DNA of 64,000 bases from the NCBI GenBank assembly GCA_026391075.1, contig JAPLES010000021.1:1-64000 (forward strand), read 5' to 3'. This DNA is from Bacteroidota bacterium. Its GTDB lineage: Bacteria; Bacteroidota; Bacteroidia; Chitinophagales; LD1. The notes below the pieces were generated by a model. The model ran no database searches. It was not told the origin of the DNA and saw only the letters and a program-made list of their open reading frames with translations. A program made the translations under genes and the position numbers. Position 1 is the stretch's first letter. Every line of letters begins with the position of its first letter. Positions 13,879 through 63,783 of the stretch are shown piece after piece.

Positions 13879-14457
13879 ATGAGTGTAGAAAATGCTTTGC
13901 GTGCGCGCAGCAATAACCAATGCGAATTGTGTAAGAGTGAAAATAAACTTTCGGTTTACGATTTGCCGCCACATGCCGAGCAACGCGAAGAAGACAGTTT
14001 GCTCGTTTGCGAAAAATGCAATTTGCAACTCACAAAAAAAGAAGAGCTCGACAGCGCGCACTGGGCTTGCCTGAGCGAAACCATGTGGAGCGAAGTGGTG
14101 CCTGTGCAGGTGGTAACCTGGCGCATGCTCAGCCGACTGCGCGATGAAAGCTGGGCGGCTGATGCCATTGACCAAATGTTTTTGGATGAACCAACTTTAG
14201 CCTGGGCTAAAGCCACGGGGGACCACGAAAACAGCAGTGCGGTTGAACTGCACCGCGACTGCAACGGAAATATTTTGAACGATGGTGATAATGTGGTGCT
14301 CACTAAAACGCTTGATGTAAAAGGCTCTTCGCTCAACGCCAAATTGGGCACGGTGGTAAAAGGAATAAAATTAGTGCCCGATAATGTGGAGCAGATTGAA
14401 GGCAAAATTGAAGGGCAAACGATTGTTATCTTAACGAAGTATTTGAGGAAGGGGTGA
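13879..14457 (+). CDS. PhnA (YjdM)-type zinc-ribbon protein
   Basis: 192 aa. The N-terminal treble-clef/zinc-ribbon region has two cysteine pairs (CELC at about 15-18 and CEKC). The middle segment AHWACLSETMWSEVVPVQV is typical of Bacteroidota PhnA proteins. The C-terminal PhnA domain contains RDCNGNILNDGDNVVLTKTLDVKGSS and ends with KYLRKG. Despite the name, this family is not part of the C-P lyase and its function is uncertain. It follows psd by 29 bases and ends two bases before the convergent exonuclease gene. Confidence 0.85.
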   Translation: MSVENALRARSNNQCELCKSENKLSVYDLPPHAEQREEDSLLVCEKCNLQLTKKEELDSAHWACLSETMWSEVVPVQVVTWRMLSRLRDESWAADAIDQMFLDEPTLAWAKATGDHENSSAVELHRDCNGNILNDGDNVVLTKTLDVKGSSLNAKLGTVVKGIKLVPDNVEQIEGKIEGQTIVILTKYLRKG

Positions 14458-18939: not shown

Positions 18940-20862
18940 ATGATAGCTGTATCCAATATTGAACTTCATTTCAGCGGACGGGTAATGTTCGGTGGAATTT
19001 CTTTTTTGATTAATGACAATGACAAAATTGGTTTAACCGGTCGCAATGGCGCGGGCAAATCTACTTTGCTAAAAGTGTTGAAAGGGATTCAACCAATTGA
19101 CGGAGGCGATATCATGTATCCAAAAGGAACGGTAATTGGTTATTTGCCACAGGAATTGCACTCGCAATCGAATCTTACAGTAATGGAAGAAACCAAGAAG
19201 GCGTTTGAACTGGTGATGCAATACAATACTGAGAAGGAGCAAATCATGCACGATATGGAAACGCGCACTGATTATGAAAGTGATAGTTACATGCAGCTAA
19301 TAGAGCGATTGGGAGAAGTAGAACATCAAATAGAAATTCATGGTGGTTATGGAGTGGAAGAACAAACGGAGCGAGTGTTGAAAGGACTTGGCTTTGACCC
19401 GGTCGATTTTGACAAGGAAATGAAAACATTGAGCGGAGGCTGGCAGATGCGAGTGGAATTGGCAAAAATACTTTTAGCAAAACCCGATTTAGTTTTGTTG
19501 GATGAGCCTACGAATCACTTGGACATTGAATCGGTTTTGTGGCTCGAAAAATTTTTGAAAGATTACCCTGGAGCCATCATTATGGTAAGTCACGATAGAA
19601 GTTTTCTGGATAACATTACCACTCGCACTGTAGAAGTTGGGAATGGCGACATTGACGATTATAATGCACCTTATACGAAGTATGTTGAACTTAGAAAAGA
19701 AAGGCGCGAGCAATTGATGGGTGCTAAGAAAAATCAGGATAGGGAAATTGCACAAATAGAACGGAACATCGACCGCTTTCGAGCGAAGGCAAGCAAGGCA
19801 ACCTTTGCCCAATCGTTGATTAAGAAACTCGACAAGATGGAACGCGTAGAGGTGGAAGAAGAAGATGCATCAGCTATGAATCTTCGTTTTCCTCATTCGC
19901 AAGCAAGTGGTAAAGTGGTGGTGGAAGCAAAAAATATTTCAAAAAGTTTTGGTGAGAAATTGGTAATAGACAAACAAAGTTTTCACATCAACCGCGGTGA
20001 AAAAATTGCTTTTGTTGGAAAAAATGGAATGGGCAAAACCACGCTCACGAGAATTTTGGTGGATGGATTGGAGCATGAAGGTACTTTCACGCTTGGTCAT
20101 AACGTAACAGTAGGTTACTACGCACAGCACGCTGCCGATTCTATGGATGGAAGTGATCAAGTGTTGGATGTAGTTGACCGTGTAGCTACTGGAGATATAC
20201 GCACGAAGCTGCGCGATATGCTCGGCTGTTTCTTGTTTAAAGGCGATGATGTTTTCAAAAAAGTAAAAGTATTGAGTGGAGGAGAGAAGGGTCGTTTGGC
20301 ACTTTGTAAAATGATTCTGGAGCCAAGAAATTTTTTGGTGATGGATGAGCCAACGAATCACTTGGACATGATGAGTAAAGAAATTTTGAAAAATGCTATC
20401 AATCAGTTTGAAGGAACAGTTGTTATTGTTTCGCACGATAGAGATTTTTTACACGGGCTAACTACCAAAACTTTTGAATTTACTAAACAGGGAATTAAAG
20501 AGCACATTGGTGATATCAATGAATTTTTGGAGAAGAAGCAGCTGGAAGATATGCGCATGCTCGCCAAAAAAGATGAAGTGAAGAAGCCCGAAGTGAAAGT
20601 GCAAAAGCAGGAAGTGAAAACGCAAGATGTAAGCAAGGAGCGCGAGAAAGAAATAAAAAAACTGAAAGGCGAAATAGAAAAAAGTGAACAGAAAATTTCA
20701 GACTTAGAAACAAAGATTGCTGAAACAGATAAAATGCTTGCCGACCAATCGCAATTTCATGAGCTTACTAAGGACCCTAATTTTTTTTCCAATTACGAAA
20801 CCTTGAAAAAGCAATTGGGAAACGAAATGACGAATTGGGAAAAATTAAGCGGGCAACTTTAA
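18940..20862 (+). CDS. ABC-F family ATPase (Uup/EttA-like)
   Basis: 640 aa from ATG 18940. A TTG start at 18907 is possible but lies upstream of a -7-like box (18923-18930). Two ABC domains lie in tandem without membrane helices: first Walker A GRNGAGKST and LSGGWQMRVELAKILL with DEPTNHLD; second GKNGMGKTT and LSGGEKGRLALCKM with DEPTNHLD. A linker of about 80 residues rich in charged residues separates them. The C terminus is a lysine/glutamate-rich coiled coil (about 545-640), as in Uup. ABC-F proteins act on ribosomes; housekeeping translation or branched-DNA roles are more likely than antibiotic resistance here. Its stop codon overlaps that of the convergent Rieske gene. Confidence 0.9.
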   Translation: MIAVSNIELHFSGRVMFGGISFLINDNDKIGLTGRNGAGKSTLLKVLKGIQPIDGGDIMYPKGTVIGYLPQELHSQSNLTVMEETKKAFELVMQYNTEKEQIMHDMETRTDYESDSYMQLIERLGEVEHQIEIHGGYGVEEQTERVLKGLGFDPVDFDKEMKTLSGGWQMRVELAKILLAKPDLVLLDEPTNHLDIESVLWLEKFLKDYPGAIIMVSHDRSFLDNITTRTVEVGNGDIDDYNAPYTKYVELRKERREQLMGAKKNQDREIAQIERNIDRFRAKASKATFAQSLIKKLDKMERVEVEEEDASAMNLRFPHSQASGKVVVEAKNISKSFGEKLVIDKQSFHINRGEKIAFVGKNGMGKTTLTRILVDGLEHEGTFTLGHNVTVGYYAQHAADSMDGSDQVLDVVDRVATGDIRTKLRDMLGCFLFKGDDVFKKVKVLSGGEKGRLALCKMILEPRNFLVMDEPTNHLDMMSKEILKNAINQFEGTVVIVSHDRDFLHGLTTKTFEFTKQGIKEHIGDINEFLEKKQLEDMRMLAKKDEVKKPEVKVQKQEVKTQDVSKEREKEIKKLKGEIEKSEQKISDLETKIAETDKMLADQSQFHELTKDPNFFSNYETLKKQLGNEMTNWEKLSGQL

Positions 20863-22052
20863 GCAAACACTTCTGAGGTTTTTAGAACTTCGGAAGTCTC
20901 ATTTTCGGTAATAGCTACCATTTTATTTTCTACCCCCATTGAAGTTGGCTCGCTGTAAAACTGACTATACCAATTTCGCATTTTCATAATCGGTCCATCG
21001 CCTTTTACCAGCAATGGTTTTTGCGCAAATTTTTTGCGCTCCCAAATGGCTATGTCATCATGAAATTGTGTGGTGGCTTCTCCCAATAAATATTTAATCG
21101 AAAGTCCGAAAGTTCCTTTTGGTGCATATACATAATCATCCATACGCACTTTTAATTGTGCAATGGGGGTGAAGGTTTTTACCAGTGTCATATCACCAAT
21201 TTCGGTGTAAAATTTAAATACTAAAAAACCGGGGCCAAAAAAGGTAACTTCTGCTTTGCCACCGGCACGCTCAATCTTTTTTCCGCTCTTTCGCCAATGC
21301 AAATCGGCTTGGTCGGTAAACCAAGCTAAATTTTTTTTGTCGCCTTCGCCATATTGCAAATCAAGTTGGTGTTTCACAGTAACCCACCGGTTAGCAAATG
21401 GAATAGTAAGTAAGTCGTGCACATACGCAAAGTGTGCGTGGTCGGCACCGTTCTCATTAAAATCCTGCAAGTGAATTCGCAACACTTCCGAAGTTCTGCA
21501 ATGAAATTTTAATTGCGGTATTTCGGTGTAATGCCCTTCTGTATTCCAGGTAGGCAATTCGTTGTTGGCATGATACCACACCATGATGATGCCCCAGTTT
21601 TCGTCCACTATCCATTTTTTTACTGCGGCACCTTGCGGCACTTTATCGCAGTAAGGAATATGCTCGCATGTTCCATCGGTATTAAATTCCCATGCATGAA
21701 ACGGACAAACGAGATTATTTCCTTTCACTTTTCCGTACGCTAAATTTGCATTCAAGTGCGGACAATAAACATCCAGCACACCTACCTTTCCATCTTCGCC
21801 TCTAAACACCGCAAGCTTTTGACCCAGCACTGTGGTTTCAACTACTTGCCCTTTTTTTACCATGTCCGATGCACCCAAACTAAACCAGCCGTTAGGGAAC
21901 GGTGGCGGATAAGATTTTGCGCGTTCTTTTTCATATTCCTCGTCAAACGCCAGTTTGTGTCTCTTTTTACCAAGCACAAAAATTTGTAAATACAAAACGC
22001 CAAATGCAGTTACGATTAGAAATAGAATAACAAGAGCAATTTTTATAAGCAT
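20859..22052 (-). CDS. Membrane-anchored Rieske oxygenase (DAF-36/Neverland/KshA-like)
   Basis: 397 aa. An N-terminal membrane helix (about 4-27) precedes a Rieske [2Fe-2S] domain with C97-P-H99 and C116-P-F-H119. The catalytic domain carries the mononuclear iron motif ENGADHAHFAYVH, with Asp204, His207 and His212 as likely site residues. This arrangement (anchor, Rieske, then DxxHxxxxH) is that of DAF-36/Neverland cholesterol 7-desaturases and the related bacterial KshA steroid hydroxylases. The substrate could be a sterol, hopanoid or other lipid; that is inference. A reductase partner is not encoded nearby. The C terminus ends with a repeated TSEV word. Confidence 0.8.
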   Translation of the reverse strand: MLIKIALVILFLIVTAFGVLYLQIFVLGKKRHKLAFDEEYEKERAKSYPPPFPNGWFSLGASDMVKKGQVVETTVLGQKLAVFRGEDGKVGVLDVYCPHLNANLAYGKVKGNNLVCPFHAWEFNTDGTCEHIPYCDKVPQGAAVKKWIVDENWGIIMVWYHANNELPTWNTEGHYTEIPQLKFHCRTSEVLRIHLQDFNENGADHAHFAYVHDLLTIPFANRWVTVKHQLDLQYGEGDKKNLAWFTDQADLHWRKSGKKIERAGGKAEVTFFGPGFLVFKFYTEIGDMTLVKTFTPIAQLKVRMDDYVYAPKGTFGLSIKYLLGEATTQFHDDIAIWERKKFAQKPLLVKGDGPIMKMRNWYSQFYSEPTSMGVENKMVAITENETSEVLKTSEVFA

Positions 22053-62778: not shown

Positions 62779-63783
62779 ATGAAGATTGACATCCACACCC
62801 ACATTATTCCCGAACATCTTCCGCGTTGGAGCGAAAAATTTGGCTATGGCGGCTTCATTCATCTCGACCACCACAAACCCTGCTGCGCGCGCATGATGAA
62901 GGACGATGAGTTCTTCCGCGAAATAGAAAACAACTGCTGGGATGCCGAGGCGCGATTGAAAGATTGCAAACACACGCATGTAGATGTGCAGGTGCTTTCT
63001 ACTATTCCTATCCTGTTTAATTATTGGGCCAAGCCGGAACACTGCTATGAAATTTCACGCTTCTTAAACGATCATATTGCTGAAGTGGTGGAACGCTATC
63101 CAAAAAAATTTATCGGCCTAGGAACAATCCCTATGCAGAATGCTGACATCGCGATTAAAGAGTTGGAGCGTTGCAAAAAAATAGGATTGGTAGGAATTGA
63201 AATTGGCAGCAATATCAACGATGTAAACTTAAATGAGCCGCAGTTCTTTCCCATTTATGAGGCGGCACAGGAATTAGATTTAGCGATGTTTGTTCATCCA
63301 TGGAATATGATGGGAACTAAACAAATGAGCAAATATTGGTTGCCGTGGTTAGTAGGAATGCCTGCTGAAACTTCTCGCGCTATTTGTTCTATGATTTTTG
63401 GCGGTGTGTTTGAAAAATTTCCAAAACTGCGAATTGCGTTTGCGCATGGTGGTGGTTCTTTCCCAAGCACCATTGGTAGAATTGAACAAGGATTTAAAGT
63501 GCGACCAGATTTAACTGCTCTCGACAACAACGTAAACCCGCGCGATTACCTCGGGCATTTTTACGTGGACTCGCTTATTCACGACACCAAATTTTTGCAG
63601 TACGTAATTGATTTAATAGGCGAAGACAAAATTTGCTGTGGCAGCGATTATCCTTTTCCATTAGGCGAAGCAATTCCCGGTGAAGAAATTGAAGCACTTG
63701 ATGTTTCGAAAAAAATAAAAGACAAATTGCTTTTTAAGAATGCGTTGAATTGGTTGAACCTCGATAAGAAAAAATTTGCATGA
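62779..63783 (+). CDS. 2-amino-3-carboxymuconate-6-semialdehyde decarboxylase (ACMSD)
   Basis: 334 aa from ATG 62779; the open frame extends upstream to 62719, but MKIDIHTHIIPEHLP is the family start and the promoter box lies inside the extension. ACMSD is a zinc amidohydrolase-superfamily decarboxylase of the kynurenine route of tryptophan degradation. Metal ligands are in place: His6 and His8, His173 (FVHPWNMMG), His223 (FAHGGG) and Asp290 (GSDYPFPLG). The family segment SKYWLPWLVGMPAETSRAICS is strongly conserved. No other kynurenine genes are in the window, so the pathway must be encoded elsewhere if complete. Confidence 0.93.
   Translation: MKIDIHTHIIPEHLPRWSEKFGYGGFIHLDHHKPCCARMMKDDEFFREIENNCWDAEARLKDCKHTHVDVQVLSTIPILFNYWAKPEHCYEISRFLNDHIAEVVERYPKKFIGLGTIPMQNADIAIKELERCKKIGLVGIEIGSNINDVNLNEPQFFPIYEAAQELDLAMFVHPWNMMGTKQMSKYWLPWLVGMPAETSRAICSMIFGGVFEKFPKLRIAFAHGGGSFPSTIGRIEQGFKVRPDLTALDNNVNPRDYLGHFYVDSLIHDTKFLQYVIDLIGEDKICCGSDYPFPLGEAIPGEEIEALDVSKKIKDKLLFKNALNWLNLDKKKFA

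What the first reader, a model, noticed from the sequence alone, without database searches (positions are those of the whole stretch)
20859..22052. Neverland/DAF-36-like Rieske oxygenase in a Bacteroidota genome
The N-terminal anchor, CxH/CxxH Rieske site and ADHAHFAYVH mononuclear iron site match animal cholesterol 7-desaturases and KshA more than aromatic-ring dioxygenases. Most Bacteroidota do not make sterols, so the substrate is open: hopanoid, host sterol or another lipid.
Basis: partly seen in the sequence, partly recalled or inferred. Interest (0 to 1): 0.5.

Follow-up and report, generated by a model that had tools for sequence, protein, structure and literature searches.

The report
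Membrane-anchored sterol-type Rieske oxygenase, Bacteroidota
This gene encodes a membrane-anchored iron enzyme of the family that oxidises steroids, in a bacterium that seems unable to make sterols but keeps other sterol-modifying genes, so it may alter sterols taken from other organisms; its actual substrate is unproven.

Summary
Window 20859-22052 (-) encodes a 397-aa Rieske oxygenase under purifying selection, with an N-terminal membrane helix, an intact Rieske site and an intact mononuclear iron site. By domain, sequence and predicted fold it belongs to the KshA_C (steroid 9alpha-hydroxylase-like) group, not with aromatic-ring, carnitine/betaine or SdmA enzymes.

It forms its own well-supported Bacteroidota clade. 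The metal ligands are kept, but five of eight listed KshA steroid contacts are changed, so it is probably not a 3-ketosteroid 9alpha-hydroxylase. No animal DAF-36/Neverland sequence was available, so the Neverland claim is untested; the cited motifs fit KshA equally.

Of 30 family genomes searched, 15 carry a full cyclase domain; the seven read there look like oxidosqualene cyclases (sterol synthesis). In the window genome I found no cyclase and no squalene synthase besides the carotenoid-cluster one, but two ERG4/ERG24-type sterol-reductase homologues (one cut short) and one KshB-like reductase.

My best reading is that it modifies sterols obtained from outside (about 0.5). Against this, no sterol gene was found linked to it and it shows no association with the cyclase. 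A non-sterol lipid substrate remains a strong rival.

The parts
20859..22052 (-). Rieske non-heme iron oxygenase, KshA_C group, 397 aa
   Evidence: ORF and translation; Pfam PF00355 + PF19298; KshA chains as best PDB hits, E 3.7e-36 to 1.9e-35
21972..22049 (-). N-terminal transmembrane helix, residues 2-27, followed by a basic stretch (catalytic domain predicted cytoplasmic by the positive-inside rule, an inference)
   Evidence: hydropathy, AlphaFold2 helix 2-27
21636..21887 (-). Rieske [2Fe-2S] domain, residues 56-139
   Evidence: PF00355, 83.2 bits; same place
21696..21764 (-). [2Fe-2S] ligands C97, H99, C116, H119 (C-X-H-X16-C-X2-H)
20955..21578 (-). Catalytic KshA_C domain, residues 159-366
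   Evidence: PF19298, 84.3 bits, positions 2-207 of 207
21417..21455 (-). Mononuclear iron motif E200-X3-D204-X2-H207-X4-H212
   Evidence: E200, D204, H207, H212 invariant in the 42 rows of A1
21054..21056 (-). D333, third iron ligand (KshA D304)
   Evidence: alignment to 2zyl; invariant in A1

Best explanation
A membrane-anchored Rieske monooxygenase or desaturase of the KshA/Neverland group that oxidises the ring system of a sterol lying in the membrane. NADH electrons would pass from the genome's KshB-like FAD/[2Fe-2S] reductase to the Rieske cluster and on to the mononuclear iron, which activates O2. The window species appears unable to make the sterol itself, so the sterol would come from outside (algae, protists, other bacteria) and be remodelled together with the two ERG4/ERG24-type reductase homologues, the logic reported for Tetrahymena and (recalled) for insects and nematodes. 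Shown by computation: family, anchor, metal sites, reductase candidate, missing cyclase, reductase homologues. Inferred: membrane orientation, electron path, sterol substrate, outside source. Not known: position and type of oxidation; 7-desaturation is one option among several.
For: KshA_C match over the whole profile. KshA is first in sequence, profile and fold searches, Z 30-31 against 25 for the next enzyme. All metal ligands are kept. The best plasmid relative (Planktothrix agardhii p2, 33% identical over residues 51-368) lies in a run of genes that includes a protein annotated as prenyltransferase/squalene oxidase repeat, a squalene synthase-like protein, P450s, ERG4/ERG24, EBP and three KshA_C Rieske genes. 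The own genome has a 439-aa ERG4/ERG24 protein (E 2.5e-54 to the Delta14-sterol reductase 4QUV) and a second, truncated one. It has one protein with FAD, NAD and Fer2 domains. ERG4/ERG24 matches over the cut-off occur in 25 of 30 family genomes and in 3 of 30 others of the order. 15 of 30 family genomes have a full cyclase domain; in the one locus scanned with profiles it stands beside squalene synthase and squalene epoxidase, and homologues of both lie in the same locus in 7 of 10 cyclase loci.
Against: No cyclase, squalene synthase, squalene epoxidase or ERG4/ERG24 homologue was found at E<=1e-8 in any of the 76 loci (flanks up to 6 kb), and neighbours are not conserved beyond close relatives. 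Orthologue presence is not associated with the cyclase: cyclase in 6 of 16 genomes with the orthologue against 9 of 14 without (p 0.27, 30 family genomes). Association with ERG4/ERG24 is weak: any match 14 of 16 against 11 of 14 (p 0.64); the larger type (over 200 bits) 11 of 16 against 6 of 14 (p 0.27), and 9 of 10 against 5 of 12 (p 0.03) only when limited to genomes at least 90% complete, uncorrected for relatedness and for the number of tests. Neither reductase homologue has a shown activity. No EBP was found in the own genome. Sterol uptake was not examined.
Confidence: 0.5

Rival explanations
1. The enzyme oxidises a non-sterol membrane lipid or isoprenoid (carotenoid, quinone, other terpenoid), and the family's sterol genes are unrelated to it.
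For: No linkage to sterol genes in 76 loci; no association with the cyclase; KshA contact residues replaced by L277, F279 and K292 in 15 of 15 clade rows; this genome has a carotenoid cluster, and its other Rieske gene stands in it.
Against: Family membership is with steroid enzymes; relatives stand in a sterol-type cluster in Planktothrix; no carotenoid gene was recognised near the window gene (only five neighbouring proteins were scanned with Pfam).
Confidence: 0.35
2. Neverland/DAF-36-type sterol 7-desaturase in the strict sense: converts a Delta5 sterol into a Delta5,7 sterol (a special case of the best explanation, counted inside it).
For: Both published motifs are met (motifs from passages of PMC7609953) and a membrane anchor is present; PMC4064121 reports that KshA clusters with Neverland (passages).
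Against: The same motifs fit KshA, so they do not discriminate; no animal sequence could be placed; nothing here points to C7 rather than another carbon.
Confidence: 0.15
3. KshA proper: 3-ketosteroid 9alpha-hydroxylase of a steroid-degradation pathway.
For: Best sequence and structural match is KshA; a reductase with KshB-type domains exists.
Against: Of the eight listed KshA substrate contacts V176, Y232, M238, N240 and N257 are changed in this protein; no 3-ketosteroid dehydrogenase over the cut-off (best 24.3 bits of 788); the tree sets KshA with two other rows (100/99) and not with this clade; KshA chains have only about 15 residues before the matched part, no room for this anchor.
Confidence: 0.05
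4. SdmA-type C4-methylsterol oxygenase.
For: SdmA is the top NCBIfam hit (64.6 bits).
Against: Far below its cut-off of 600 bits, and only residues 54-212 match; another Rieske protein of the same genome, without the KshA_C domain, scores 108.8. No SdmA sequence was in the tree.
Confidence: 0.03

Closest known systems
KshA, 3-ketosteroid 9alpha-hydroxylase oxygenase (2ZYL, 4QDF, 4QDC)
   Same: Domains, Rieske spacing X16, all metal ligands, fold (Z 30-31); 96 identical of 312 aligned residues with 2zyl
   Different: N-terminal membrane helix; V176, Y232, M238, N240 and N257 replaced; no KstD found in the genome; separate clade
Neverland / DAF-36 / Tetrahymena DES7, sterol C7-desaturases
   Same: Both published motifs, reported relationship to KshA; membrane anchor (recalled for the animal enzymes)
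   Different: Bacterial; activity and substrate unknown; could not be placed on a tree together
Three KshA_C Rieske proteins of the Planktothrix agardhii p2 sterol-type cluster
   Same: Same two Pfam domains; the one compared residue by residue is 33% identical
   Different: No strong hydrophobic N-terminus (best 19-residue mean 1.28, 0.24 and 0.24); gene cluster context instead of a lone gene
SdmA, bacterial C4-methylsterol oxygenase
   Same: Rieske half
   Different: No match beyond residue 212; score 64.6 of a 600-bit cut-off

Membership tests
KshA_C Rieske oxygenases (Pfam PF19298 + PF00355) | Both domains over the curated cut-offs | tested here: met
   84.3 bits (cut-off 23.3) and 83.2 bits (cut-off 20.3)
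KshA_C Rieske oxygenases (Pfam PF19298 + PF00355) | Cys2His2 Rieske ligands and 2-His-1-Asp iron triad | tested here: met
   C97, H99, C116, H119, H207, H212, D333 align to the KshA ligands
KshA, 3-ketosteroid 9alpha-hydroxylase | Steroid-contact residues V176, Q204, Y232, M238, N240, N257, F301, W308 (listed as putative in PMC4064121, passages) | tested here: not met
   In this protein three are kept (Q233, F330, W337) and five changed (G202, F271, L277, F279, K292); Q at 233 is in only 4 of 15 clade rows. Rests on a sequence alignment of 31% identity
KshA, 3-ketosteroid 9alpha-hydroxylase | Two-component system with a KshB-type FAD/[2Fe-2S] reductase | tested here: inconclusive
   One protein with FAD, NAD and Fer2 domains exists, unlinked; its best NCBIfam model is PaaE, 337 bits of a 420.8 cut-off
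KshA, 3-ketosteroid 9alpha-hydroxylase | 3-ketosteroid dehydrogenase in the same genome | tested here: not met
   Best 24.3 bits against a cut-off of 788 with one model; other degradation genes not tested
Neverland/DAF-36 sterol C7-desaturase | C-X-H-X16-17-C-X2-H and E/D-X3-D-X2-H-X4-H | tested here: met
   against the motifs in PMC7609953 (passages); not discriminating, since KshA meets them too
Neverland/DAF-36 sterol C7-desaturase | Groups with animal and ciliate enzymes on a tree | not testable with these tools
   No animal sequence at hand; one viral-contig scan found no relative
Neverland/DAF-36 sterol C7-desaturase | 7,8-dehydrogenation of cholesterol | not testable with these tools
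   Needs an assay
SdmA C4-methylsterol oxygenase (NF052579) | Score over the equivalog cut-off of 600 bits | tested here: not met
   64.6 bits, residues 54-212 only
Carnitine/betaine and aromatic-ring oxygenase alpha subunits | NCBIfam equivalog models or ring-hydroxylating Pfam domain | tested here: not met
   GbcA 23.3 of 670 bits, BenA 22.3 of 780.95, HcaE 26.3 of 830; only Rieske and KshA_C among the Pfam hits at E<=0.001

The most novel reading that the evidence does not exclude
A Bacteroidota lineage whose ancestors made sterols has lost the cyclase in some members, which now live as sterol auxotrophs: they take up sterols from eukaryotes and remodel them with a Neverland-like membrane Rieske B-ring oxidase and ERG24-like reductases, a free-living bacterial parallel to the sterol economy of insects, nematodes and ciliates.
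Probability: 0.15. Interest if true: 0.75.

Novelty: new variant of a known kind. Interest (0 to 1): 0.48.

Why it matters
If the substrate is a sterol, this would be a bacterium that modifies sterols without the genes to make them (Coxiella has sterol reductases of this kind, passages of PMC3554619), and a membrane-anchored bacterial branch of the group in which the animal hormone enzyme Neverland is reported to cluster. It would help test where that enzyme came from and whether sterol remodelling without synthesis occurs in other bacteria. The finding that half of the family's genomes searched carry a cyclase domain would also add to the Bacteroidota listed as having oxidosqualene cyclase in PMC4919349 (Fluviicola and Eudoraea; passages).

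Tried and rejected
Hopanoid substrate: rejected for this genome, no SHC/OSC C-terminal domain found (the same model finds matches in 24 of 60 relatives at E<=0.001, 17 of them at E<1e-40). SdmA: rejected. Steroid catabolism: made unlikely by changed pocket residues and no KstD over the cut-off. Carnitine/betaine and aromatic-ring enzymes: rejected.

Animal relatives: a viral-contig scan gave 19 pattern matches, none a relative. The primary Neverland and DES7 papers are not held, nor is the KshA substrate-complex paper. An operon or conserved neighbourhood was sought and not found: among 14 orthologue loci L003 keeps the surrounding genes, L006 and L007 keep the ABC-F neighbour, L004 and L014 have beside it one gene that in the window lies elsewhere (13879-14457 and 62818-63777), and the other nine share nothing else at E<=1e-40. 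A DUF2147-type gene stands beside the orthologue in 3 of 7 loci taken (L126, L134, L136; Pfam seen for two of them), with no homologue in the window at E<=1e-3. The three P450s of the own genome could not be typed as sterol enzymes.

Tree: of 76 loci I used 41, chosen for single open frames and spread; 35 were left out (partial, frameshifted, near-duplicate or simply not chosen). The program warned that the long outgroup branches meet the window clade, so only the clade's unity (100/100) and the KshA group with L024 and L038 (100/99) are used, not the clade's sister group.
Full report
WHAT IS THERE. The window gene is an open frame of 397 codons at 20859-22052 on the minus strand. It lies end to end with a convergent ABC-F-type ATPase gene, the two ORFs overlapping by four bases, and 318 bases downstream (in its own reading direction) of an unnamed 314-aa ORF on the same strand (no Pfam family for the latter). 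Pfam gives a Rieske domain and a KshA_C domain over nearly the whole profile. The window genome (G000, 3.6 Mb, 98% complete) has two Rieske matches at E<=0.001; this is one of them.

PURIFYING SELECTION AND SPREAD. A scan of genome contigs returned 76 loci; 14 (L003-L016) are 57-93% identical Bacteroidota orthologues and the other 62 are at most 45% identical over their best segment, those that match over most of the length at about 29-38%. Between the window gene and L003, L004 and L006 dN/dS is 0.07, 0.10 and 0.12. Among 60 relatives (own genome included), 17 have an orthologue at E<1e-100: 16 of 30 in the window's family and one elsewhere in the order. In a sample of 295 genomes of the class only the window genome itself reaches that level; 15 of 295 have any match at E<=1e-20.

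ANATOMY. A hydrophobic helix at residues 2-27 is followed by a basic stretch; the model (mean pLDDT 86.1, pTM 0.80) shows that helix, the Rieske and catalytic parts, and a tail from 371 with pLDDT under 50. 13 of the 14 named orthologues have a strongly hydrophobic N-terminus (best 19-residue mean 2.73-3.51); L015 does not (0.86), its N-terminus being different. All Rieske and iron ligands are present and invariant in the 42-row alignment.

FAMILY. KshA chains lead the PDB sequence search (E 3.7e-36 to 1.9e-35, next SxtT at 2.7e-17), the profile search (257-232 bits, next 126), Foldseek (ranks 1-6) and VIA-align 2 (Z 30.0-31.4, rmsd 2.8-3.7, 301-312 aligned; next dicamba monooxygenase at 25.2). 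SdmA, betaine and aromatic models score far below cut-off. In the tree of 60 rows the 15 Bacteroidota rows form one group (100/100) on a long stem; KshA groups with L024 and L038 (100/99), not with them; the sister group is unresolved.

POCKET. PMC4064121 (passages) lists putative substrate-interacting residues of M. tuberculosis KshA. Mapped by the phmmer alignment, Q204, F301 and W308 are kept here, while V176, Y232, M238, N240 and N257 become G202, F271, L277, F279 and K292. G202, L277, F279 and K292 are the same in 15 of 15 clade rows; position 271 is F in 11 and Y in 4, and 233 varies. So the clade seems to have its own fixed pocket, different from KshA's. This rests on a sequence alignment of about 31% identity and could shift by a residue or so in the loop regions.

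REDUCTASE. The genome has one NAD_binding_1 match, in a 361-aa ORF with FAD_binding_6, NAD_binding_1 and Fer2 domains, the components named for KshB in passages of PMC4064121. It is on another contig and its best model is PaaE, below cut-off, so it is a candidate only; it might also have to serve the second Rieske protein.

STEROL GENES IN THE FAMILY. The cyclase domain PF13243 was not found in the window genome, which has a single squalene/phytoene synthase-type match, in the carotenoid cluster. Of 60 relatives 17 have a full-domain match (E<1e-40), 15 of them in the 30-genome family. I read eight cyclase proteins, seven of them from the family: six have the DCTAE motif exactly, and the other two have DCTAD (L122) and DCTSE (L125, outside the family) at that place (motif meaning recalled). 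The one scanned with profiles (L145) scores 718 bits with the squalene/oxidosqualene cyclase model and 717 with the oxidosqualene cyclase model (whose cut-off is 851, so not reached), against 269 with the hopene cyclase model; its neighbours are squalene synthase (447 bits) and squalene epoxidase (303.6 bits). Homologues of both lie in the same locus in 7 of 10 cyclase loci, directly beside the cyclase in six and a few genes away in L135; the other three loci, two of which are cut near the cyclase by a contig end, show none. Bacteroidota cyclases are already in print for Fluviicola and Eudoraea (passages of PMC4919349).

STEROL-TYPE GENES IN THE WINDOW GENOME. It has two PF01222 (ERG4/ERG24) matches: a 439-aa ORF on C77 (228.5 bits; E 2.5e-54 to the Delta14-sterol reductase 4QUV) and one on C53 with a stop inside the match (158.4 bits), while G309 and G298 have ORFs of 359 aa there. 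It has three P450 matches, not typed, ten FA_hydroxylase matches at eight places, not typed, and no EBP match. PF01222 was over its cut-off in 25 of 30 family genomes and in 3 of 30 others. Sterol reductases in organisms that do not make sterols have precedents: Coxiella burnetii encodes two, one active in yeast, although no cholesterol was made from host sterols (passages of PMC3554619; that it lacks synthesis is recalled), and sterol-auxotrophic Phytophthora keeps a DHCR7 (start of the abstract of PMC8984297 in the listing). Tetrahymena assimilates and desaturates sterols at C5, C7 and C22, and its C7 enzyme is a Rieske oxygenase by the title of a cited paper (passages of PMC8079401, and its abstract start).

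CO-OCCURRENCE. In the 30 family genomes the orthologue and the cyclase are not associated (6 of 16 against 9 of 14, p 0.27). Orthologue and any PF01222 match: 14 of 16 against 11 of 14 (p 0.64). Orthologue and the larger PF01222 type (over 200 bits): 11 of 16 against 6 of 14 (p 0.27); limited to 22 genomes at least 90% complete, 9 of 10 against 5 of 12 (p 0.03). Over all 60 genomes p for the larger type is 0.0002, but this is confounded by family. These are simple Fisher tests, uncorrected. So the enzyme does not seem to need a home-made sterol, and a link with sterol reductases is suggestive at best.

A CLUE FROM ELSEWHERE. The best-ranked plasmid relative, in Planktothrix agardhii p2, matches residues 51-368 at 33%. 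It sits in a run of genes for a protein annotated as prenyltransferase/squalene oxidase repeat, a squalene synthase-like protein (93.7 bits, below cut-off), an annotated FAD monooxygenase, four annotated P450s, a 3beta-HSD-like SDR, a KstD-like flavoprotein (618.8 bits of a 789 cut-off), three KshA_C Rieske proteins, ERG4/ERG24 (244.8 bits) and EBP (47.6 bits). This puts KshA_C proteins inside what looks like a steroid-making cluster, although the KstD-like gene would also suit steroid oxidation. Against this, none of the cyclase, squalene synthase, squalene epoxidase and ERG4/ERG24 queries matched in any of the 76 loci; the only matches there were P450s (17 loci) and one reductase (L018).

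VERDICT. Ordinary in kind (a KshA_C Rieske oxygenase), unusual in setting. I put 0.5 on a sterol substrate taken from outside (including about 0.15 for strict C7-desaturation), 0.35 on a non-sterol lipid, and little on KshA or SdmA function. Searches of the held library for Rieske with Bacteroidota and sterol, Neverland/DAF-36 with bacteria, SdmA, cholesterol 7-desaturase, oxidosqualene cyclase with Bacteroidetes and Rieske C-7 desaturase (15 of 173 listed) showed no paper on such an enzyme in Bacteroidota, judged from titles and abstract starts; most subscription papers are not held.

Noticed in passing
G000:C14, L116:5985-16432: The genome's second Rieske oxygenase heads a carotenoid cluster (CrtD, PF04240 carotenoid synthesis protein, CrtI-type, SQS_PSY, lycopene cyclase) that is followed by a bacteriorhodopsin-like gene: a candidate Rieske-type carotenoid oxygenase beside a rhodopsin.
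   Followed up: partly
L118-L125, L127-L145: Cyclases that look like oxidosqualene cyclases (full domain in 15 of 30 genomes of the window's family), with squalene synthase and squalene epoxidase beside the one scanned with profiles.
   Followed up: partly
L182, L183 (Planktothrix agardhii p2): Plasmid-borne sterol-type gene cluster with three KshA_C Rieske proteins, EBP and ERG4/ERG24.
   Followed up: partly
L031, L032, L039, L042, L045, L047, L052, L055, L056, L065, L066: A P450 match lies directly upstream of the KshA_C Rieske gene in 11 gammaproteobacterial loci.
   Followed up: no
G000:C53:5804-6853: Second ERG4/ERG24 homologue of the window genome has a stop codon inside the match, while G309 and G298 have longer frames: recent decay or an assembly error.
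   Followed up: no
L126:8715-9233, L134:8895-9332, L136:10700-11239: A DUF2147-type gene stands next to the Rieske orthologue in three genomes.
   Followed up: partly
L014:27-992: Beside the orthologue in L014 stands a close homologue (85% identical) of the amidohydrolase-like gene at window 62818-63777, about 41 kb away in the window.
   Followed up: no
G000 (C82, C57, C14, C18, C43, C73, C33): Many fatty-acid-hydroxylase/sterol-desaturase superfamily matches in one genome: ten matches at eight places, not typed.
   Followed up: no
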